The notes beneath the pieces were generated by a model. The model was not told the origin of the DNA, ran no database searches, and was given only the letters and a program-made list of their open reading frames with translations. From Lachnospiraceae bacterium (GTDB taxonomy: Bacteria; Bacillota; Clostridia; Lachnospirales; Lachnospiraceae): a stretch of 42,082 nt of DNA. Shown piece by piece: positions 5,426 through 36,540 of this stretch. Numbering within the stretch: the stretch's first letter is position 1; the number at the start of each line of letters is the position of its first letter. The stretch is from assembly GCA_014804785.1 (NCBI GenBank), contig JAAUZD010000005.1, positions 1 to 42,082 on the forward strand, written 5' to 3'. A program made the position numbers and the translations under genes.

Positions 5426-5518
5426 AAGAACGCGTTAATTGTAGTTAATAGATGAATCAATAGACAAATCAATGTATTTATCTGTAGATCTATTTAGATT
5501 AATTTGGAGGAAGAGATT

Positions 5519-5680
5519 ATGAGGAAAATCATGAATGTACTGAAAGAAAAAAAGCTTTGGGGAGTAGTAAACAGTCTGGCACTGGTTATGGTTGCTGCTA
5601 ATGCACAGCAGTGCTGTTATTGGTTTTTTAATCAGCCTAAATTTCCTGAAGAAGCTGAAAAGTACAGGAAATTCAAATAA
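5519..5680 (+). CDS. agrD: AgrD-like autoinducing prepeptide
   Basis: 53 residues, ATG 5519 behind GGAGG. The N-terminal part (MRKIMNVLKEKKLWG...) is an amphipathic leader, then comes AANAQQCCYWFFNQPKFPEE and a charged tail. The C-Y-W-F-F core followed by N-Q-P matches the plan of clostridial AgrD peptides, where a five-residue thiolactone ring starting with Cys precedes an (x)QP tail. By that analogy the mature ring would be Cys33-Phe37, with Cys32 as an unusual neighbouring exocyclic Cys. It lies five bases before agrB, which would process it. Identity is strong from context and motif; the exact mature peptide is inferred. Confidence 0.88.
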   Translation: MRKIMNVLKEKKLWGVVNSLALVMVAANAQQCCYWFFNQPKFPEEAEKYRKFK

Positions 5681-5685
5681 AGCCT

Positions 5686-6282
5686 ATGTTGGAATCAGTG
5701 GCATATAGAATCGTCAATACTCAAATCCGCAAAGGTCTTCTAAAGGAAGAAGACCGGAACATCTACCAATATGGTTACCAGATGTTGATGGAATACTGCA
5801 TCAACATAGCAACATCAATTACCATTGCAGCCTTTTTTCATGCCTATAAAATTGTTTTGGTATTTTCGCTGGCATATTTCCTGCTAAGGGGATATGCCGG
5901 CGGATACCATGCAAAGACCAGCATCGGATGTCTCCTAATGTCGGCGACGGTGCTTGGGGCGGTTGTAGCGGTGGTTAGGTATGTTGGTAATATTAGTTTC
6001 AGTAAAGAGTTGATTTTGGCGGAAGTGGTCATGTTACCATATGTGTTTAAGAAGATGCCAATTCCGGTGAAGAATAAACCTATTTCAGAAAATGAGAAGA
6101 TTCATTTTGGGAAAATGGCAAGATGGGTGTATGCGGTAGAACTTGCAGTGGGTATTGTGCTTATTGGGCTTGGCAGGATGGAGATTGCTTTATCGGTGCT
6201 GGCGGCTCATGGGGTGGTTTTTATTATGGCTGTGGGGGATAGCGCTTATCGATTTGTAAAAGGGGTTATAAATAAAACGTAA
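5686..6282 (+). CDS. agrB: AgrB-type accessory gene regulator, prepeptide protease
   Basis: 198 residues with several membrane helices. The signature LLRGYAGGYHAKTSIGC places catalytic His75 and Cys82 seven residues apart, as in known AgrB cysteine endopeptidases. It removes the C-terminal tail of AgrD and forms the thiolactone during export. The start at ATG 5686 lies five bases after the agrD stop without a clear ribosome binding site, suggesting translational coupling. It ends only 10 bases before the left inverted repeat of the next module, so read-through from agrDB would enter that module. No terminator is visible between them. Confidence 0.94.
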   Translation: MLESVAYRIVNTQIRKGLLKEEDRNIYQYGYQMLMEYCINIATSITIAAFFHAYKIVLVFSLAYFLLRGYAGGYHAKTSIGCLLMSATVLGAVVAVVRYVGNISFSKELILAEVVMLPYVFKKMPIPVKNKPISENEKIHFGKMARWVYAVELAVGIVLIGLGRMEIALSVLAAHGVVFIMAVGDSAYRFVKGVINKT

Positions 6283-6292
6283 GTGATGAAAT

Positions 6293-6412
6293 GAAGGATA
6301 ATACTGGATTATCGATAAGGCAGAGTTATCTATTGAATAATTACTGAATTTTTCGATTCCTAATTATGATATGTTTAGCAGTTCTACTGGATATATTGAG
6401 TAAGAGGTATGG
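6293..6412 (+). repeat. left arm of a 120-bp inverted repeat
   Basis: This stretch is repeated in reverse complement at 8127-8252. By eye the alignment shows one substitution and one 6-base indel (an extra TATGAT in the right copy) over 120 bases. It runs from GAAGG to the first four coding bases (ATGG) of the gene starting at 6409, so it contains that gene's whole upstream region and start codon. The outer flanks show no target-site duplication. Confidence 0.93.
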
Positions 6413-7416
6413 GAAATATGATTAATCAATTAGAACATAAGTTTTCAATAAAACGTGTGGGAAAAACCACTGAAGATGATTATGTTAAAGCATTACGAAT
6501 ATATAATGACACCACACCATTCGAAATAAAAACACCTTCAAATGAAATATCGTATTGGATATGTAAACAGAAAGCTAGTACTCCTTTTGAAGTATATGCT
6601 TTTATTCTGTACTTAAATGATGAAGTGATCGGTTTTTCAATGACAACATATATTAAGAGGACAAAGATAGTTGTAGACGAGTATCTTGCAGTTTATGATC
6701 GATATAGAATACAAACAATTTTTTTAGTATACGAGAGTTTAATTCAAAATTATTATAAAGAAACAGGCATAGAAATTTCATATTATCTAACAGAAATAAG
6801 TTATAAAGAATCTGGTAAAGAAATGGATAGGGAAAGTAAAATCTCATTAAAAATGTTGTGTATTGAAGAGTATGGAAAAATAGATGCCTTGTATTATGCC
6901 TTACCATTAGGATTAGAAAATCATGAGAGTAACTTTATTGCTCATATTTACATAAAAGGAGTTGAACCCATTCAAAGTATTTCACCAAAAACGTATCAAG
7001 ATATTATTGACTCTATTTATTATGATTATTGGTATACATGGTATAATGCAATATTATCTTTGGCTGAATTGGAAATATATAAAAAACAAATTGATAGAAA
7101 TTTTGAATTAATTAAGAAAAGTTTTAATAACAATATGTCATCTATGTCTGTTTTACATAGTAGTTGTAATTATTTAAACGTGGATGCTAATATTTCAAAA
7201 GAATCAATTCCTGCAAAAAGGCAATCAAAACATCACATTTTTTTAATAGTTGTACCTATCATAATAATATTGCCTTTATTTATTATATGGGGTTATAGCG
7301 AGGCTTTGAAGATTTTCAATTTATCAATATCTTCTATTAGCACAATGGTAGGCACCATTATTAGTGCGGTTATAACATCACTTACTACATTATTTATAGC
7401 CAGAAAAAAGTTATAA
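6409..7416 (+). CDS. GNAT-like protein with two C-terminal membrane helices, unknown function
   Basis: 335 residues, start inside the left inverted repeat. Residues of roughly 10-190 resemble a GNAT acyltransferase-like fold (VIGFSMTTYIKR, then EYLAVYDRYRIQTIFLVYESL), but the acetyl-CoA loop is degenerate: RYRIQTIF stands where R/Q-x-x-G-x-G/A is expected. A helical linker follows, then membrane helices near 274-295 (IFLIVVPIIIILPLFIIWG) and 305-332, with a basic C terminus. Codons are much more AT-rich than in the neighbouring agr genes. It converges on the methyltransferase gene with a 6-base overlap of stop regions. I cannot assign a function; a membrane-tethered modifying or effector protein is only a guess. 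Confidence 0.75.
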   Translation: MGNMINQLEHKFSIKRVGKTTEDDYVKALRIYNDTTPFEIKTPSNEISYWICKQKASTPFEVYAFILYLNDEVIGFSMTTYIKRTKIVVDEYLAVYDRYRIQTIFLVYESLIQNYYKETGIEISYYLTEISYKESGKEMDRESKISLKMLCIEEYGKIDALYYALPLGLENHESNFIAHIYIKGVEPIQSISPKTYQDIIDSIYYDYWYTWYNAILSLAELEIYKKQIDRNFELIKKSFNNNMSSMSVLHSSCNYLNVDANISKESIPAKRQSKHHIFLIVVPIIIILPLFIIWGYSEALKIFNLSISSISTMVGTIISAVITSLTTLFIARKKL

Positions 7417-8130
7417 TAAATTTTTTTGACAATGCATAATTATATTATTACCATGTTTACTAAAAAAAGGAAGTTTGCATAATAGTTTATCTATTTGCAC
7501 TAAATTAATAGCTGATTGATCATCCAGAAATCTTGAGAATAATCCATCAGAAATATGAAAGGGATACTTTTCAACAATATTAAAATTGTAAGTTTTTAAA
7601 ATATTTATTATGTATTTAGGAGAATATAACCACTGATTATGGCTACTTTCAATATACTCGGTGGTTATTATGCATGCATCTTTTTTATAACAATCTTTAT
7701 GCAAATATTCAAATCCCCAACTACTTTCATATTCTAAAATAAGATTACCGCTTGGTTTTAAAACTCTTGATAACTCTGAAATTGCGGTTAATGCATCGCA
7801 ATAATTTAAAACACTCCCAACACAAATGATATTATCAAAAAACAAGTCATCAAATGGCATTTTCTCAATGCTTGCAATTACTGCGTTGTCGATATTTTTA
7901 ATTTTTTCATCTGCAATGTCTACATGGTACATTAAACGACATTTTATTCCGTAAGAATTGCCAGCAGATCCAGCATTGAGGACAATGGAATTCCTGAAAA
8001 TATCTTTATATTCAATATAAGTAGTAATTACTTTTTGCGAATAATCATGCCACGGATCATGATTCCCCCAAACATTAGAAACACTATTATAAAATGATTT
8101 CACTTTTTCTTGATCTAATTTCATTGCCAT
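7411..8130 (-). CDS. class I SAM-dependent methyltransferase
   Basis: 239 residues on the minus strand, ATG at 8130 within the right inverted repeat. Motif I is IVLNAGSAGNSYG, an acidic position follows in YHVDIADEKI, and the DNIICVGSVLNYCDALTAI segment with LKPSGNLILEYES matches the Methyltransf_11-type fold (about 45-145). The substrate is unknown. The C-terminal part carries Trp, Tyr and Phe residues that may shape it. The gene ends overlapping the convergent gene by six bases and is as AT-rich, so the two look like one imported unit. Nothing in the sequence shows whether DNA, peptide or a small molecule is methylated. Confidence 0.85.
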   Translation of the reverse strand: MAMKLDQEKVKSFYNSVSNVWGNHDPWHDYSQKVITTYIEYKDIFRNSIVLNAGSAGNSYGIKCRLMYHVDIADEKIKNIDNAVIASIEKMPFDDLFFDNIICVGSVLNYCDALTAISELSRVLKPSGNLILEYESSWGFEYLHKDCYKKDACIITTEYIESSHNQWLYSPKYIINILKTYNFNIVEKYPFHISDGLFSRFLDDQSAINLVQIDKLLCKLPFFSKHGNNIIMHCQKNLL

Positions 8131-8252
8131 ACCTCTTACTCAATATATCCAGTAGAACTGCTAAACAAATCATAATCATAATTAGGAATCGAAAAATTCA
8201 GTAATTATTCAATAGATAACTCTGCCTTATCGATAATCCAGTATTATCCTTC
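8127..8252 (-). repeat. right arm of the 120-bp inverted repeat
   Basis: Reverse complement of 6293-6412, with one extra TATGAT unit. It contains the start codon (8128-8130) and upstream region of the methyltransferase gene. The two arms enclose 1,714 bases. No recombinase or transposase gene is visible inside or next to the element. Confidence 0.93.
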
Positions 8253-8409
8253 GTTCATAAAAGAAATATAGGCATAAAGGGTGATATCAATTATGTACTT
8301 GTAAAGTAAAAAATCAACCAGAAAACTAATCATTTCTATATTCCCAATGCCATGTTAGAGTGTAAGATTAAGAAAACAAGAATATGATATGAGGAGTTGA
8401 ACATATCGC

Positions 8410-8950: not shown

Positions 8951-9072
8951 TCAATCAAAGCATAAATTTCAATATTCTATTACATATCTAAATGCTAAAT
9001 CAATAGCAGTTACAATGTGCCTATGGGCGTCAGACGAAATCATGCTTTTATTCCAAATCAAAAATGAATAAA

Positions 9073-9129
9073 GCAGGAGATTTTAAGTCGACGTTTCCGT
9101 ATGGCAGAGACATTGCTGGTATCTCCTGC
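9073..9129 (+). promoter_or_regulatory. long-range stem next to the ribosome binding site
   Basis: GCAGGAGAT (9073-9081) is perfectly complementary to ATCTCCTGC (9121-9129), which directly abuts the ribosome binding site AAAGGAGG of the gene at 9142. The stem would hold the site at the foot of a hairpin. Regulatory function is inferred. Confidence 0.35.
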
Positions 9130-9141
9130 AAAGGAGGTACT

Positions 9142-10203
9142 ATGGGAAAAGAAGACATTGGGCTTAAGTCATACTTAGAGGATGCCGGGCGTTATGCTGA
9201 TCTCTGGAATGGCGGTGTATTTGAAGGAAAGGAGATTGTGAAAGCTGAACAGCTTCAGGAAATCAATCCACTACTCCATAAGGCGGATGATGAAGGTATT
9301 CTGGAGCGAAATCGTGATTTAGTCATGAAGCAGAGCTGTGATGGAAAGTGTTTTGCTGTTTTTGCAGTGGAGAATCAGAAGACAGTAGATTACGGTATGC
9401 CGGCGCGTATCATGCTCCAGGAAGCATTGGAATACAGCCGTCAGATTCAGACGATTATGAAGAAAAACGAAAATGCGGATAAGGAACTCCGGCAGGACGG
9501 AAGTAAAAAGGACAATAGTTTTCCTGTATATAGTGATGTAGGGGAACGACTATATAAAATTAGAAAAGATGACCGGCTTTATCCCGTTATGACGCTGGTA
9601 GTTTATTGGGGTGAAAAAGAGTGGGAGGGTCCAAGAAGTCTTCATGATATGATTGACTTTACCGCTGGAAGCAGGTCTATGGAAGAGGAATTCAGAAAAC
9701 TGGTTCCAGAGTATCCGATACACTTTTTGGATTTATCTGCTTTTGAGCATTTTGAATTTTTTAAGACAGAGTTACGACCTCTGTTAGAGTTGTTTAAAAG
9801 ACGAGACAACAAAGAGAAGTTTGTAAAATATATAGAAGAGAACAAAAGTGATTGGAAAATGAATGATGAAAGTTGGTTTATGCTTAGCCAGCTTACTCAT
9901 TCCAAAACTTTAAAAAGTTTGATTAGAGAAAAAGGTCGGGCAGCAGGCATAGGCAAGAAAGAAGGAGAAAGTGAGGGAAAAAATATGTTGAAGGCACTCG
10001 ATGATTGGGCAAATGATGCAAAGGCGGAAGGAAAAGCAGAGAGCATTATAGATTTTTTGGAGGTCTATGGAGAGATTCCGGACAGTTTGAGAGATGAAAT
10101 TCTTAACCAGAAAAATTTGGAAATCATGCAGAGGTGGGTCAAGTTGGCTGCAAGGGCAGGCAGCATTCAGAACTTTATACAAGGTATGCATGCCCAGAAT
10201 TAG
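9142..10203 (+). CDS. Rpn-family / PD-(D/E)XK nuclease-family putative transposase
   Basis: 353 residues from ATG 9142, chosen because AAAGGAGG lies six bases upstream; the frame stays open to 9064 but without a site there. The N-terminal domain (about 1-215) has the pattern of the multi-copy Rpn/transposase_31-like proteins of Lachnospiraceae: LEDAGRYADLWNGGVFEG, then FAVFAVENQKTVDYGMPARI with the acidic catalytic region, and YPVMTLVVYWGEKEWEGP. The C-terminal part is Lys/Glu-rich and helical. E. coli Rpn relatives promote RecA-independent recombination. No inverted repeats mark this copy as an insertion sequence. Activity is not shown by the sequence. Confidence 0.85.
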   Translation: MGKEDIGLKSYLEDAGRYADLWNGGVFEGKEIVKAEQLQEINPLLHKADDEGILERNRDLVMKQSCDGKCFAVFAVENQKTVDYGMPARIMLQEALEYSRQIQTIMKKNENADKELRQDGSKKDNSFPVYSDVGERLYKIRKDDRLYPVMTLVVYWGEKEWEGPRSLHDMIDFTAGSRSMEEEFRKLVPEYPIHFLDLSAFEHFEFFKTELRPLLELFKRRDNKEKFVKYIEENKSDWKMNDESWFMLSQLTHSKTLKSLIREKGRAAGIGKKEGESEGKNMLKALDDWANDAKAEGKAESIIDFLEVYGEIPDSLRDEILNQKNLEIMQRWVKLAARAGSIQNFIQGMHAQN

Positions 10204-34551: not shown

Positions 34552-34567
34552 AATGCCTTTTTCTAAT

Positions 34568-34689
34568 CCCTTAGTTTAGTATATACATGAAGTGAAAATG
34601 CCTGCTTGCAGAAGTATTTTCACGAATGTATCGAGCGGCTTGCCGCGAGATGCAAATGCGCCCCCCGGATGCTTCCACCATCCGGGGGT
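34568..34689 (+). repeat. structured 122-bp repeat, copy 1 (includes amt terminator)
   Basis: It is nearly identical to 36385-36507: two substitutions and one indel by eye. It folds as three hairpins: GTGAAAAT/ATTTTCAC, GCGGC-TT-GCCGC, and CCCCCGGATG/CATCCGGGGG (about 34660-34688), the last acting as a terminator for the ammonium transporter gene. Both substitutions keep base pairing through G-U exchanges. Confidence 0.9.
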
Positions 34690-34773
34690 TTGCTTTGGGA
34701 TTTGTGATAACAATTTGATAACAAAATGATTTATGTTTTATTTTGTGTATCTAAAATGTGTTAAAAAATATAC

Positions 34774-34802
34774 TTGCAGGAGTAAAAGAACAGTCATATA
34801 AT
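34774..34802 (+). promoter_or_regulatory. promoter of the small hydrophobic peptide gene
   Basis: TTGCAG (34774-34779), 17 bases, TATAAT (34797-34802). In the transcript CACCC (34816-34820) can pair with GGGTG (34839-34843) at the ribosome binding site, a typical toxin-mRNA brake. Confidence 0.7.
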
Positions 34803-34848
34803 GATTTTGTTGTCGCACCCATTCTGGCAACAGAAAGGGGGTGTTAGT

Positions 34849-34944
34849 TTGGCGATACTAGTTTCTTTCTTAATCTCCGTTATGGCAAGCGTAGTCGGCT
34901 ACTACATATGCAAATGGTTAGATGGAGATGATAGCGACAATTAG
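34849..34944 (+). CDS. 31-aa hydrophobic peptide, candidate type I toxin
   Basis: TTG 34849 behind AAGGGGGTG; the peptide starts MAILVSFLISVMASVVGYYI, a single membrane helix, then CKWLDG and an acidic tail (DDSDN). Size, single helix and charged tail are those of type I toxins such as TxpA-like peptides. It has its own strong promoter, a leader that can mask the ribosome binding site, and an antisense transcription unit facing its 3' end. The overlapping longer frame at 34922-35128 has no support. Toxicity is inferred, not shown. A broken copy of the 3' end of this locus is found at 36508-36540. Confidence 0.62.
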   Translation: MAILVSFLISVMASVVGYYICKWLDGDDSDN

Positions 34945-34947
34945 CCT

Positions 34948-35023
34948 AAAAAGAACCCCCAAGGAGCGGCTACTCTTTGGGGGTTCGCTTTGTGCTAGCT
35001 TGGCACTAATTTCTTTCTTTGTC
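34948..35023 (-). ncRNA. candidate antisense antitoxin RNA, about 75 nt
   Basis: On the minus strand a consensus-like promoter (35030-35058) would start an RNA near 35023. It would end at the hairpin GAACCCCCAA/TTGGGGGTTC (34953-34962 with 34977-34986), followed on this strand by five U (34948-34952). The RNA would be complementary to the 3' untranslated part of the peptide mRNA, beginning three bases after its stop codon, the TxpA/RatA arrangement. Confidence 0.52.
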
Positions 35024-35029
35024 ACTGAT

Positions 35030-35058
35030 AGTATAGCATATTCAGTTGATATTATCAA
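35030..35058 (-). promoter_or_regulatory. promoter of the antisense RNA
   Basis: Minus strand TTGATA (35053-35058), 17-base spacer, TATACT (35030-35035). Confidence 0.68.
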
Positions 35059-35081
35059 GTGGTTCCGTCTTTGGGGTCATA

Positions 35082-35157
35082 GTTTTGGCAAAGCCAAAAC
35101 GTATTTCGCAGGGGTTAGCACCCCTTGACCCTGCTTAATAGCACCCTTTCGGGTGCT
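35082..35157 (+). terminator. hairpin cluster at the 3' end of the toxin-like transcript
   Basis: GTTTTGGC/GCCAAAAC (35082-35089 with 35093-35100), AGGGG/CCCCT around 35110-35125, and AGCACCC/GGGTGCT (35140-35146 with 35151-35157). None has a good T run; together they may end or stabilise the plus-strand transcript. Confidence 0.35.
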
Positions 35158-35199
35158 ATATTCAATCTTCCAGATTGATTTGGAAATGCAGGTATGTTG

Positions 35200-35310
35200 T
35201 TATTTGAGTAATTCAGCTAAAAGATTTCTGGCATCTTCAAATCCTTGTCTATATGCTAATGAACCATAAACAGCACTTACGGCATTGTTGGCAGATAAGG
35301 AATTACACAA
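35200..35310 (-). other. out-of-frame C-terminal segment of the helical protein, or a 36-aa gene
   Basis: From TTG 35310 (AAAGGAG three bases upstream) this frame encodes 36 residues: MCNSLSANNAVSAVYGSLAY followed by RQGFEDARNLLAELLK. The helical, Leu-rich ending looks like a genuine protein C terminus and would fuse to the preceding gene with a single added A in its A6 run. A separate overlapping gene with a close ribosome binding site is the alternative. Confidence 0.45.
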
Positions 35311-35672
35311 TATCTCCTTTTTTGATTTTTATTTGCATATTCCTTTAAAAAGTTATCAATATTTGTAGATTGAGTATTTATATATCCTTGCTCCATGACT
35401 TTATATAGTTGAAAGCCGATAATTGCACCTACTTGTAAGTATACATCACTATGTGTGGTTGCAAATTCAACTAACAGGTCATGAAGAATTTCGTCTTTTT
35501 CAGGCGTGCATGGAAAAAATTTTGCCAGTTTTTCACAAATAATGTTAAAAGAAGCATTAATGTTGGCTTCATACGAATCGGCATTTTTTTCTGATGCATC
35601 TGCACCATATAAAAGAAGAGAAGTGACATTGGCTAGGTTTATTCTGCTTAGTAATTGGTTAAATTCAGACAT
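35277..35672 (-). CDS. small helical protein of unknown function, probably frameshifted at its end
   Basis: 131 residues from ATG 35672, behind AAAGGGGG. The protein is acidic and mostly helical (MSEFNQLLSRINLANVTSLL, DEILHDLLVEFATTHSDVYL, GAIIGFQLYKVMEQGY), resembling the small helical DUF6809-like proteins common in Clostridia, though I cannot confirm the family. The last 14 residues (RRYCVIPYLPTMP) look unnatural. They follow a run of six A's (35318-35323 on the plus strand as T); one more A would instead join the frame to the ORF at 35200-35310. It is divergent from the repressor gene at 35805 and shares its control region. Confidence 0.6.
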   Translation of the reverse strand: MSEFNQLLSRINLANVTSLLLYGADASEKNADSYEANINASFNIICEKLAKFFPCTPEKDEILHDLLVEFATTHSDVYLQVGAIIGFQLYKVMEQGYINTQSTNIDNFLKEYANKNQKRRYCVIPYLPTMP

Positions 35673-35725
35673 TTTATAACCCCCTTTGTGCTTTTATATT
35701 CTGTTTTGATTTATTAATTATAATA

Positions 35726-35777
35726 TGCCGCCAAAATGCCGTTAATACATATTTTGACGGCACTTTGACGTTATAAT
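35726..35777 (+). promoter_or_regulatory. four-site operator and -10 box of the first RHH gene
   Basis: Half-sites TGCCGCCA (35726) and TGCCGTTA (35737) lie 11 bp apart. Inverted half-sites TGACGGCA (35755) and TGACGTTA (35766), also 11 bp apart, follow. The last overlaps TATAAT (35772-35777). One helical turn between sites fits cooperative ribbon-helix-helix dimers. The region is shared with the divergent gene at 35672. Confidence 0.6.
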
Positions 35778-35804
35778 AAAGGCATAAAACATTAGGAGTC
35801 TCAT

Positions 35805-35975
35805 ATGGAACCAAAGCAAGCTAAGTTTACAATAAGAGTCAATTCGGAATTACTAAAAAAATTTCATTTTGTTGCAGAGTATAATGCTCGTTCAGCTAAC
35901 AGGGAGATAGAGGTCATTATGAAAGAGCACGTAAAAGCATTTGAAAGAATTTATGGTAGAATTGAGCAAGACTAA
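35805..35975 (+). CDS. Arc-type ribbon-helix-helix DNA-binding protein 1
   Basis: 56 residues, ATG 35805. The beta strand KFTIRVNSELLKKF and helix-turn-helix-like FVAEYNARSANREIEVIMKE are the Arc/Mnt ribbon-helix-helix signature found on phages, plasmids and conjugative elements. It shares about two thirds of residues with the second protein at 36069. Operators with 11-bp periodicity overlap its -10 box, so it is probably autorepressed. It follows AGGAG with about eight bases spacing. Confidence 0.82.
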   Translation: MEPKQAKFTIRVNSELLKKFHFVAEYNARSANREIEVIMKEHVKAFERIYGRIEQD

Positions 35976-35985
35976 CAAGAAATAG

Positions 35986-36037
35986 AGCCGTCATAGTGCC
36001 GTCAAAACGCAAACTGCCGTCATTCCGACTTTATAAT
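35986..36037 (+). promoter_or_regulatory. iterated operator and -10 box of the second RHH gene
   Basis: AGCCGTCA (35986), TGCCGTCA (35997, 11 bp on) and TGCCGTCA (36015) precede TATAAT (36032-36037). The same TATAATAAxGGCATAA context follows as at the first RHH gene. The 11-bp-spaced pair and the third copy are direct repeats, unlike the inverted layout upstream of the first gene. Confidence 0.58.
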
Positions 36038-36068
36038 AAGGGCATAATTTTTTTATGGAGGTTTAATT

Positions 36069-36239
36069 ATGCCATCAGATTTATCAAAGTTTACGGTACG
36101 AACTGACTGCGAACTTCTAAAAAAGTTTCGTTATGTCGCAGAATATAATGCGCGTTCTGCAAATAGGGAAATTGAAGTTTTAATGAAAAAGCATATTGCC
36201 GATTTTGAAGAGGTACATGGCAGTATAGAGTTCGAGTAG
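36069..36239 (+). CDS. Arc-type ribbon-helix-helix DNA-binding protein 2
   Basis: 56 residues, ATG 36069 behind GGAGG. It has the same length and fold as the protein at 35805 (KFTVRTDCELLKKF, YVAEYNARSANREIEVLMKK), about 66 percent identical over 50 residues by eye. The central VAEYNARSANREIEV is identical, so DNA contacts may overlap while the strand residues differ (TIRVNSE versus TVRTDCE). It is expressed from its own iterated operator. A tandem duplication with divergence of recognition is likely. Confidence 0.82.
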   Translation: MPSDLSKFTVRTDCELLKKFRYVAEYNARSANREIEVLMKKHIADFEEVHGSIEFE

Positions 36240-36384
36240 CTTCTTATTTTATACTGATGTGCGTGATAACATTTTGATAACATAATTTTTAAAATCATAT
36301 AAAAAACATAGTTTTTGAATAAAAAGACCATGAAATGCAAACGAAAAAGTAGAGTTTATAAGGGTATAAACTTATAAATCTATA

Positions 36385-36540
36385 CCCTTAGTTTAGTATA
36401 TACATGAAGTGAAAATACCTGCTTGCAGAAGTATTTTCACGAATGTATCGAGCGGCTTGCCGTGAGATGCAAATGCGCTCCCCCGGATGCTTCCACCATC
36501 CGGGGGTCGCTTTGTGCTAGCTTGGCACTAATTTCTTTCC
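36385..36540 (+). repeat. structured repeat, copy 2, fused to the 3' end of the toxin locus
   Basis: 36385-36507 repeats 34568-34689. At the GGGGGT of the last hairpin it switches directly to a copy of 34986-35017 (CGCTTTGTGCTAGCTTGGCA and following). The promoter, peptide gene and antisense promoter present in copy 1 are therefore missing, as after deletion between two GGGGGT stretches. The rest of 36240-36384 holds paired TGATAACA motifs at 36264 and 36275 and a 9-bp inverted repeat (AAGGGTATA/TATACCCTT). Confidence 0.85.

What the first reader, a model, noticed from the sequence alone, without database searches (positions are those of the whole stretch)
6293..8252. Two convergent genes enclosed by long inverted repeats that carry both start codons, directly behind agrDB
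Arms 6293-6412 and 8127-8252 are reverse complements with one substitution and one 6-base indel. Each arm contains the upstream region and ATGG of the gene it borders; the genes (membrane-anchored degenerate GNAT, SAM methyltransferase) meet tail to tail with a 6-base overlap and are AT-rich. Recombination between the arms would invert the core and swap which gene lies behind agrB, where no terminator is seen, giving a possible on/off choice coupled to quorum sensing. No recombinase is nearby, so a host recombinase or RecA would be needed. A toxin/modifier or defence pair is another reading.
Basis: partly seen in the sequence, partly recalled or inferred. Interest (0 to 1): 0.82.

Follow-up and report, generated by a model that had tools for sequence, protein, structure and literature searches.

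The report
Flipping, swappable two-gene DNA cassette
Two head-on genes behind a bacterial quorum-sensing operon sit in a cassette bounded by inverted recombination sites; relatives of this cassette lie beside their own recombinase gene, one is on record in both orientations, and the same slots hold different gene pairs in different bacteria.

Summary
In detail: near-identical inverted arms (126/132 bases) enclose convergent GNAT-like and SAM-methyltransferase genes behind agrDB. The outer end of each arm is a tyrosine-recombinase-type site, AAGGATAA-N7-TTAT, with the same 7-base spacer on both sides. The same layout (convergent genes filling the space between two inverted, identical-spacer sites) was found in 33 elements from Lachnospiraceae, Streptococcus, Aliarcobacter and Paenibacillus, many beside a Xer-like recombinase. 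The window's own genome has an intact orphan member of that recombinase family and a second cassette. One plasmid record (Streptococcus equinus CP020439.2) holds a cassette in both orientations inside otherwise >99.9% identical duplicated DNA, with breakpoints at the arms. Slots beside the recombinase and behind agrB hold different gene pairs; one relative has a single palindromic site behind agrB instead. Related cargo includes ThsA/TIR, Mrr-STAND/glycosyltransferase and pentapeptide/radical-SAM pairs, which suggests defence or self-modification. That inversion chooses which gene is transcribed, and that agr drives it here, is inferred, not shown; promoter scans gave no signal, and the Thoeris-like pair argues against strict either/or expression. 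Ten paper searches showed no description of this architecture.

The parts
6290..6415 (+). left arm of the inverted repeat, carrying the start codon of the GNAT-like gene
6294..6312 (+). left recombination-type core AAGGATAA-TACTGGA-TTAT
6315..6329 (+). second, nested inverted site ATAA-GGCAGAG-TTAT (left copy)
6409..7416 (+). GNAT-like gene, 335 aa, C-terminal hydrophobic segment (by eye)
7411..8130 (-). SAM-dependent methyltransferase gene, 239 aa, PF08241 4.1e-8
8124..8255 (-). right arm of the inverted repeat, carrying the start codon of the methyltransferase gene
8216..8230 (-). second, nested inverted site (right copy)
8233..8251 (-). right recombination-type core, same spacer as the left one, inverted
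5504..6282 (+). context: agrD (5504-5680) and agrB (5686-6282), upstream operon ending 11 bases before the left core
9064..10203 (+). context: YhgA-like gene (PF04754) right of the slot, used to recognise the same slot in G020 and G035

Best explanation
The element is a two-gene cassette bounded by inverted tyrosine-recombinase sites, probably served in trans by a Xer-like recombinase encoded on another contig (C28). Recombination between the two sites inverts the gene pair, and cassettes with different gene pairs can occupy the same slot, either beside the recombinase or at secondary slots such as the one behind agrB. Shown: the sites, the layout, the recombinase family, different cargo at the same slot in related strains, and both orientations in one relative's record. 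Inferred: that this cassette is active in its own host; that inversion changes which gene is read by transcription entering from outside (here possibly agrDB read-through); that the pair is a defence or self-modification system.
For: Eight arms of four elements share ATAATA....TTAT with a spacer equal at both ends of one element. Six plasmid loci with close recombinases have exactly this pair around a convergent pair, two distant-recombinase controls do not. In 60 recombinase neighbourhoods of the family 21 have such a pair, 17 within 400 bp of the recombinase 3' end; shuffles give none. 33 elements: 32 convergent by ORF caller, the 33rd (L006) by its annotation. CP020439.2 holds a 2,069-bp cassette in both orientations between >99.9% identical flanks. 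Homologous TPR|ATP-grasp cassettes face the recombinase in opposite orientations (L364 against L368, L369). S. salivarius and Aliarcobacter slots keep outer flanks but differ in cargo. Contig ends: 13 of 60 recombinases have the 3' end within 300 bp of a contig end, 1 of 60 the 5' end. Own genome: homologous recombinase, 45% identical to the S. salivarius one, open frame, recalled catalytic residues present.
Against: 39 of 60 recombinase loci show no pair in the DNA fetched; L147, 15 kb around the own recombinase, has no exact core site. The link between the C28 recombinase and AGGATAA arms is not statistically supported (8 against 28 loci, p = 0.11). No read data; both orientations were not seen for the window element. 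CP020439.2 could be an assembly artefact (39-bp inverted repeats, over-long record). Contig ends could reflect strain mixtures in MAGs. Promoter scans found no excess over shuffles. The ThsA/TIR cassette L348 suggests that some pairs act together.
Confidence: 0.72

Rival explanations
1. Mobile two-gene (immune-like) cassette: both genes are expressed in either orientation and act together; the inverted sites serve mainly for exchange of cassettes between replicons, and inversion is a by-product.
For: Cargo families recur as pairs, e.g. four Mrr-STAND/GT2-like and four pentapeptide/radical-SAM elements; L348 pairs ThsA with a TIR protein, partners that need each other in Thoeris (recalled). Same slot, different cargo; window and L004 carry related pairs at different loci.
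Against: In short-arm elements the start codon lies mostly 14-63 nt inside the core, leaving little room for a promoter of its own inside the cassette, so transcription must come largely from outside; homologous cassettes occur in both orientations.
Confidence: 0.35
2. Relic: the window cassette is no longer flipped because no recombinase is linked and the pair has been fixed behind agrB.
For: No recombinase in the window beside it; the recombinase frames of two agr-slot relatives carry one in-frame stop (G007, G035).
Against: The arms are still nearly identical over 126/132 bases; the own recombinase frame is open with the recalled catalytic residues.
Confidence: 0.2
3. Ordinary transposon or MITE-like element with terminal inverted repeats.
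For: Inverted termini; related pairs at unrelated loci.
Against: No transposase in the element; ends are spacer-matched Xer-type sites with a Xer-like gene adjacent in relatives; no target duplication is visible in the flanks (by eye); G007 has the two outer half-sites joined as one palindromic site.
Confidence: 0.05
4. RecA-type homologous recombination between long arms, without any dedicated enzyme.
For: Arms of 126/132 bases in the window.
Against: Many relatives have inner arms of 15 nt or less, too short for efficient RecA action (recalled), yet keep the layout; a recombinase gene is adjacent in many.
Confidence: 0.05

Closest known systems
Ureaplasma UU172/UU171 and mba/UU376 phase-variable loci (PMC3047005; abstract and passages seen)
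   [quoted passage not shown] here both genes are whole, each behind its own site, and cassettes differ at one slot. A linked recombinase and exchange of unrelated cargo were not seen in the passages read.
Integrons (recalled; listings only)
   Same: Tyrosine recombinase with an adjacent slot that holds varying cargo.
   Different: Here the sites are two inverted copies flanking two convergent genes, one cassette per slot in what I saw; no arrays, no attC-like folded site was looked for.
XerC/XerD-dif (recalled)
   Same: Xer-type recombinase (nearest solved structure XerD) and ATAA..TTAT-type arms.
   Different: Two relatives tested lie below the NCBIfam XerC and XerD cut-offs; 7-base spacer, sites in inverted pairs around cargo.
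Streptococcus pneumoniae PsrA hsdS inversions and C. difficile invertible switches (abstracts in listings only)
   Same: Tyrosine-recombinase DNA inversion giving subpopulations.
   Different: Those listed invert promoter or DNA segments at fixed loci (details recalled); none shown with interchangeable convergent gene pairs.
Thoeris (ThsA/ThsB) and Kiwa (KwaA/KwaB)
   Same: L348 cargo matches ThsA and a TIR protein; Kiwa genes lie just before the cassette in G009.
   Different: The window's GNAT-like/MTase pair matches neither.

Membership tests
Site-specific inversion system of a tyrosine recombinase | two inverted sites with the same spacer flanking the segment | tested here: met
Site-specific inversion system of a tyrosine recombinase | cognate recombinase | tested here: inconclusive
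   Adjacent in many relatives; for the window only an orphan family member on C28; action on the sites not tested; arm/recombinase co-variation p = 0.11
Site-specific inversion system of a tyrosine recombinase | both orientations observed | tested here: inconclusive
   Met in one record of a relative, CP020439.2, and across homologous cassettes; not observed for the window element
Site-specific inversion system of a tyrosine recombinase | orientation changes expression | not testable with these tools
   No RNA data; promoter scans show no excess
Integron | integrase of the integron family | tested here: not met
   Two relatives score 104-105 bits against a cut-off of 265 for TIGR02249; the own recombinase was not scanned
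Integron | single-gene cassettes with attC, in arrays | tested here: not met
   Convergent gene pairs between inverted sites; attC folding not tested
Transposon / MITE | transposase or target-site duplication | tested here: not met
   No transposase ORF inside (pfam); no duplication visible by eye in flanks
Known anti-phage defence system (PADLOC-DB 2.0.0) | model match of the window's two proteins | tested here: not met
   No match for the GNAT-like protein; one weak match (E 0.027) for the methyltransferase
Thoeris (cassette L348 only) | ThsA and a TIR protein together | tested here: met
   ThsA 1.1e-60; TIR chains in PDB 2.3e-11; activity not tested
agr quorum-sensing component | conserved part of agr loci | tested here: not met
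   Related cassettes lie elsewhere (L004, L146 and others); G007 has agrB without a cassette

The most novel reading that the evidence does not exclude
A new class of bacterial cassette system: a dedicated Xer-like recombinase flips and exchanges convergent two-gene modules, many of them immune-like, at slots beside itself and at remote slots including the end of a quorum-sensing operon, so that populations keep both orientations and strains swap modules: an invertible counterpart of the integron.
Probability: 0.5. Interest if true: 0.93.

Novelty: new variant of a known kind. Interest (0 to 1): 0.85.

Why it matters
It ties DNA inversion, exchange of gene pairs and probable immune cargo into one layout that I did not find described: the recombinase is in 59 of 397 sampled genomes of the window's family, and members occur on Streptococcus, Aliarcobacter and Paenibacillus plasmids. 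It gives a sequence rule (two identical-spacer inverted ATAA-N7-TTAT sites around convergent genes, often beside a Xer-like gene) for finding new two-gene systems, several without any Pfam or PADLOC match. It makes testable whether bacteria hedge costly functions by flipping whole gene pairs, here possibly under quorum sensing.

Tried and rejected
No relative of the GNAT-like protein or of the recombinase was found in viral contigs, nor of the GNAT-like protein or methyltransferase in phages. Samples: GNAT-like protein in 1 of 144 relatives and 1 of 398 phylum genomes, the own one each time; recombinase at the strict E<=1e-80 in 1 of 398 phylum genomes, again the own one. The single-site pattern is mostly background: 79 matches in 37 genomes against, by my sum of the table, 70 for the reversed control pattern, and 15 against 12 in the own genome; only same-spacer pairs, palindromic sites and the contig-end excess carry signal. 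The AlphaFold model of the GNAT-like protein was poor (mean pLDDT 43.7) and was not searched; its profile found no solved structure at E<=0.1. agr as part of the system was rejected because cassettes occur at unrelated loci. RecA-only inversion was dropped as the leading idea once the recombinase family was found. Distant recombinase relatives L154 and L155 (about 30% identity) had no such pair. The arm-against-recombinase co-variation test was not significant (p = 0.11). Promoter scans gave 27, 15 and 35 sites against 24.9, 14.8 and 35.5 in shuffles.

Full report
What is there. The arms are found at only these two places in the own genome and in none of the 36 other genus genomes.

The ends are recombination-type sites. 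The one relative that the search for related loci returned, L004 (83% identical GNAT-like protein, a Lachnospiraceae MAG), has the same convergent pair at a locus where I see no agr genes, and its own inverted ends resemble the window's only over a short stretch. S. salivarius and A. faecis plasmids carry homologous pairs (GNAT-like 39.3% and 28.8%, methyltransferase 40.9% and 39.2% identity), again convergent, with a tyrosine recombinase gene next to them. Aligning the eight arms left ATAATA....TTAT as the common core; the 7-base spacer is equal at both ends of one element and differs between elements.

A second cassette in the same genome. A search for the core found an inverted pair on contig C43, 5.75 kb apart, enclosing two GT2-type glycosyltransferases that converge on an Mrr-STAND-type ATPase. 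Of 15 exact GGATAA-N7-TTAT matches in the genome, only these two pairs share a spacer; the reversed control pattern has 12 matches, so single matches mean little.

The recombinase. The S. salivarius protein has a 45%-identical homologue in the own genome at C28:76845, with an open frame and the residues I recall as the tyrosine-recombinase catalytic set. There is no exact core site in the 15 kb around it, so here it would act in trans. Two relatives score below the NCBIfam XerC and XerD cut-offs; the nearest solved structure is XerD.

Different cargo, same slot. Close recombinase homologues on other plasmids lie beside other convergent pairs: polyprenyl synthetase with an unknown protein, SHMT-like enzyme with a STAND-TPR protein, ATP-grasp enzymes with AAA/STAND-type or unknown proteins. 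In each of these six loci one identical-spacer inverted pair bounds the cassette; in two distant-recombinase controls there is none. The Streptococcus cassettes share outer flanks (GGTATACTAA.., CTTCGTATAG..) although the cargo differs, and so do two Aliarcobacter slots.

Inversion on record. The S. equinus plasmid record CP020439.2 contains the same region twice. The flanks match at >99.9% over 5.9 kb and 9.0 kb in one orientation, while the 2,069-bp cassette is inverted, with breakpoints at the arms. The simplest reading is that both orientations were present in one isolate; an assembly artefact is not excluded. In the window's family, homologous TPR|ATP-grasp cassettes stand in opposite orientations to the recombinase (L364 against L368 and L369); over seven elements with an ATP-grasp gene the enzyme is recombinase-proximal in four and distal in three.

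Family-wide test. The recombinase profile matched 59 of 397 family genomes, 65 copies, the own one included (E<=1e-75), and the own protein matched in 19 of 37 genus genomes (E<=1e-60). I fetched 60 of the 64 other family copies, leaving out the four weakest. 21 of 60 had an identical-spacer inverted pair, 17 of 60 with an edge within 400 bp of the recombinase 3' end; 39 of 60 had none. 20 shuffles of each locus gave none. In 13 of 60 the contig ends within 300 bp of the 3' end, in 1 of 60 near the 5' end; 12 of those 13 have an ATAA-N7-TTAT site in the remaining bases, against a background of 299 such sites in 1.19 Mb of other loci. Of 79 matches of the AAGGATAA form in the genus, contig lengths were known for 77; 7 lie within 130 bp of a contig end against 0.57 expected, in 6 of the 7 with the inward side facing the end. 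This is what an assembly fork would give where two orientations or two cassettes follow one flank; strain mixtures in MAGs would do the same.

Layout. For 33 elements (21 from those loci and 12 of 14 others given to the script; L005 and L152 fell below its match threshold but have pairs by the looser rule), predicted genes fill 0.86-1.01 of the span except in L006 (0.41, where one ORF was called from an upstream start), and 32 are plus-then-minus; L006 is convergent in its annotation. Cargo families recur as pairs by blastp clustering: a GT2-like gene with an Mrr-STAND gene in four elements, pentapeptide with ATP-grasp/radical-SAM in four, an ATP-grasp enzyme in nine (partners scanned: AAA-type in L151, L153 and L334, TPR in L364, none recognised in L329), SHMT-like in five (partners scanned: STAND-TPR in L150, AAA in L228, none recognised in L365), carbamoyltransferase with an AAA/NB-ARC-type protein in two (domain names, for the members scanned). 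A further pentapeptide protein, L351, has an unrecognised partner. L348 pairs ThsA with a TIR protein. L323 has a recombinase directly beside a GNAT-like/MTase pair (21% and 37% identical to the window's).

The agr slot. Behind agrB the own genome has the GNAT-like/MTase cassette. G007 has a single palindromic site AAGGATAA-TACCAGA-TTATCCTT, then sequence homologous to window 8813 onwards. G009 has Kiwa genes KwaA and KwaB and then a cassette of a 1033-aa protein without Pfam match and a GT2 enzyme. G020 and G035 have the site next to homologues of the window's right-hand genes (recognised by eye), where the contig ends; agrB was not matched in those two by DNA. So agr does not define the system but adjoins a recurrent slot. 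No terminator-like site separates agrB from the element, so read-through is possible but not shown.

Mechanism and limits. Inversion by a dedicated recombinase is the best-supported step. Gene choice is inferred: in the short-arm elements measured, starts lie mostly 14-63 nt inside the core (one at 100; three mechanical ORF starts fall inside or before the core), in the window 96 and 102 nt, so transcription should come from outside; an extended -10-like TATGGTATACT just outside the S. salivarius left core is seen by eye, but the scans show no excess of promoter-like sites. The ThsA/TIR cassette argues for joint action in some cassettes. How a cassette enters an empty site is unexplained: inverted sites permit inversion and, between two loaded slots, double-crossover exchange, but not simple circular excision.

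Literature. In their listings, and in passages of PMC5903667 and PMC3047005, I saw no interchangeable convergent gene-pair cassettes. The library lacks most subscription papers and all bioRxiv preprints, so absence from print is not established.

Verdict. Inversion cassette family: well supported. Activity of the window's own cassette, gene choice, agr coupling and defence role: inferred, in falling order of support.

Noticed in passing
own genome C43:61734-67502 (L146 5729-11509): Second cassette of the same kind in the window's genome: two GT2-type glycosyltransferases converging on a 1084-aa Mrr-STAND-type protein.
   Followed up: partly
L159 2991-4604 (genome G009): KwaA and KwaB (Kiwa defence genes) directly behind agrB, before the cassette.
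   Followed up: partly
L348 6643-8869 (genome G636): Cassette whose convergent genes are ThsA and a TIR protein, a Thoeris-like pair in an invertible layout beside the recombinase.
   Followed up: partly
L160 8617-8643, L212 2117-2138, L220 7292-7313: Single palindromic sites AAGGATAA-N7-TTATCCTT without a cassette; the one in L212 (G022) lies at the 3' end of the recombinase gene.
   Followed up: partly
window 6290-6415; L159, L210, L228, L323, L335, L346, L359: Some elements have long inner arms (about 50-140 nt), several with a second nested inverted pair; others have inner arms of 15 nt or less. Reason unknown.
   Followed up: no
recombinase genes of G007 (C22) and G035 (C14): The recombinase frame carries one in-frame TAA in two relatives whose agr slot has a site.
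   Followed up: no
window 34562-36539: Direct repeats of 105, 38 and 28 nt about 1.5-1.8 kb apart.
   Followed up: no
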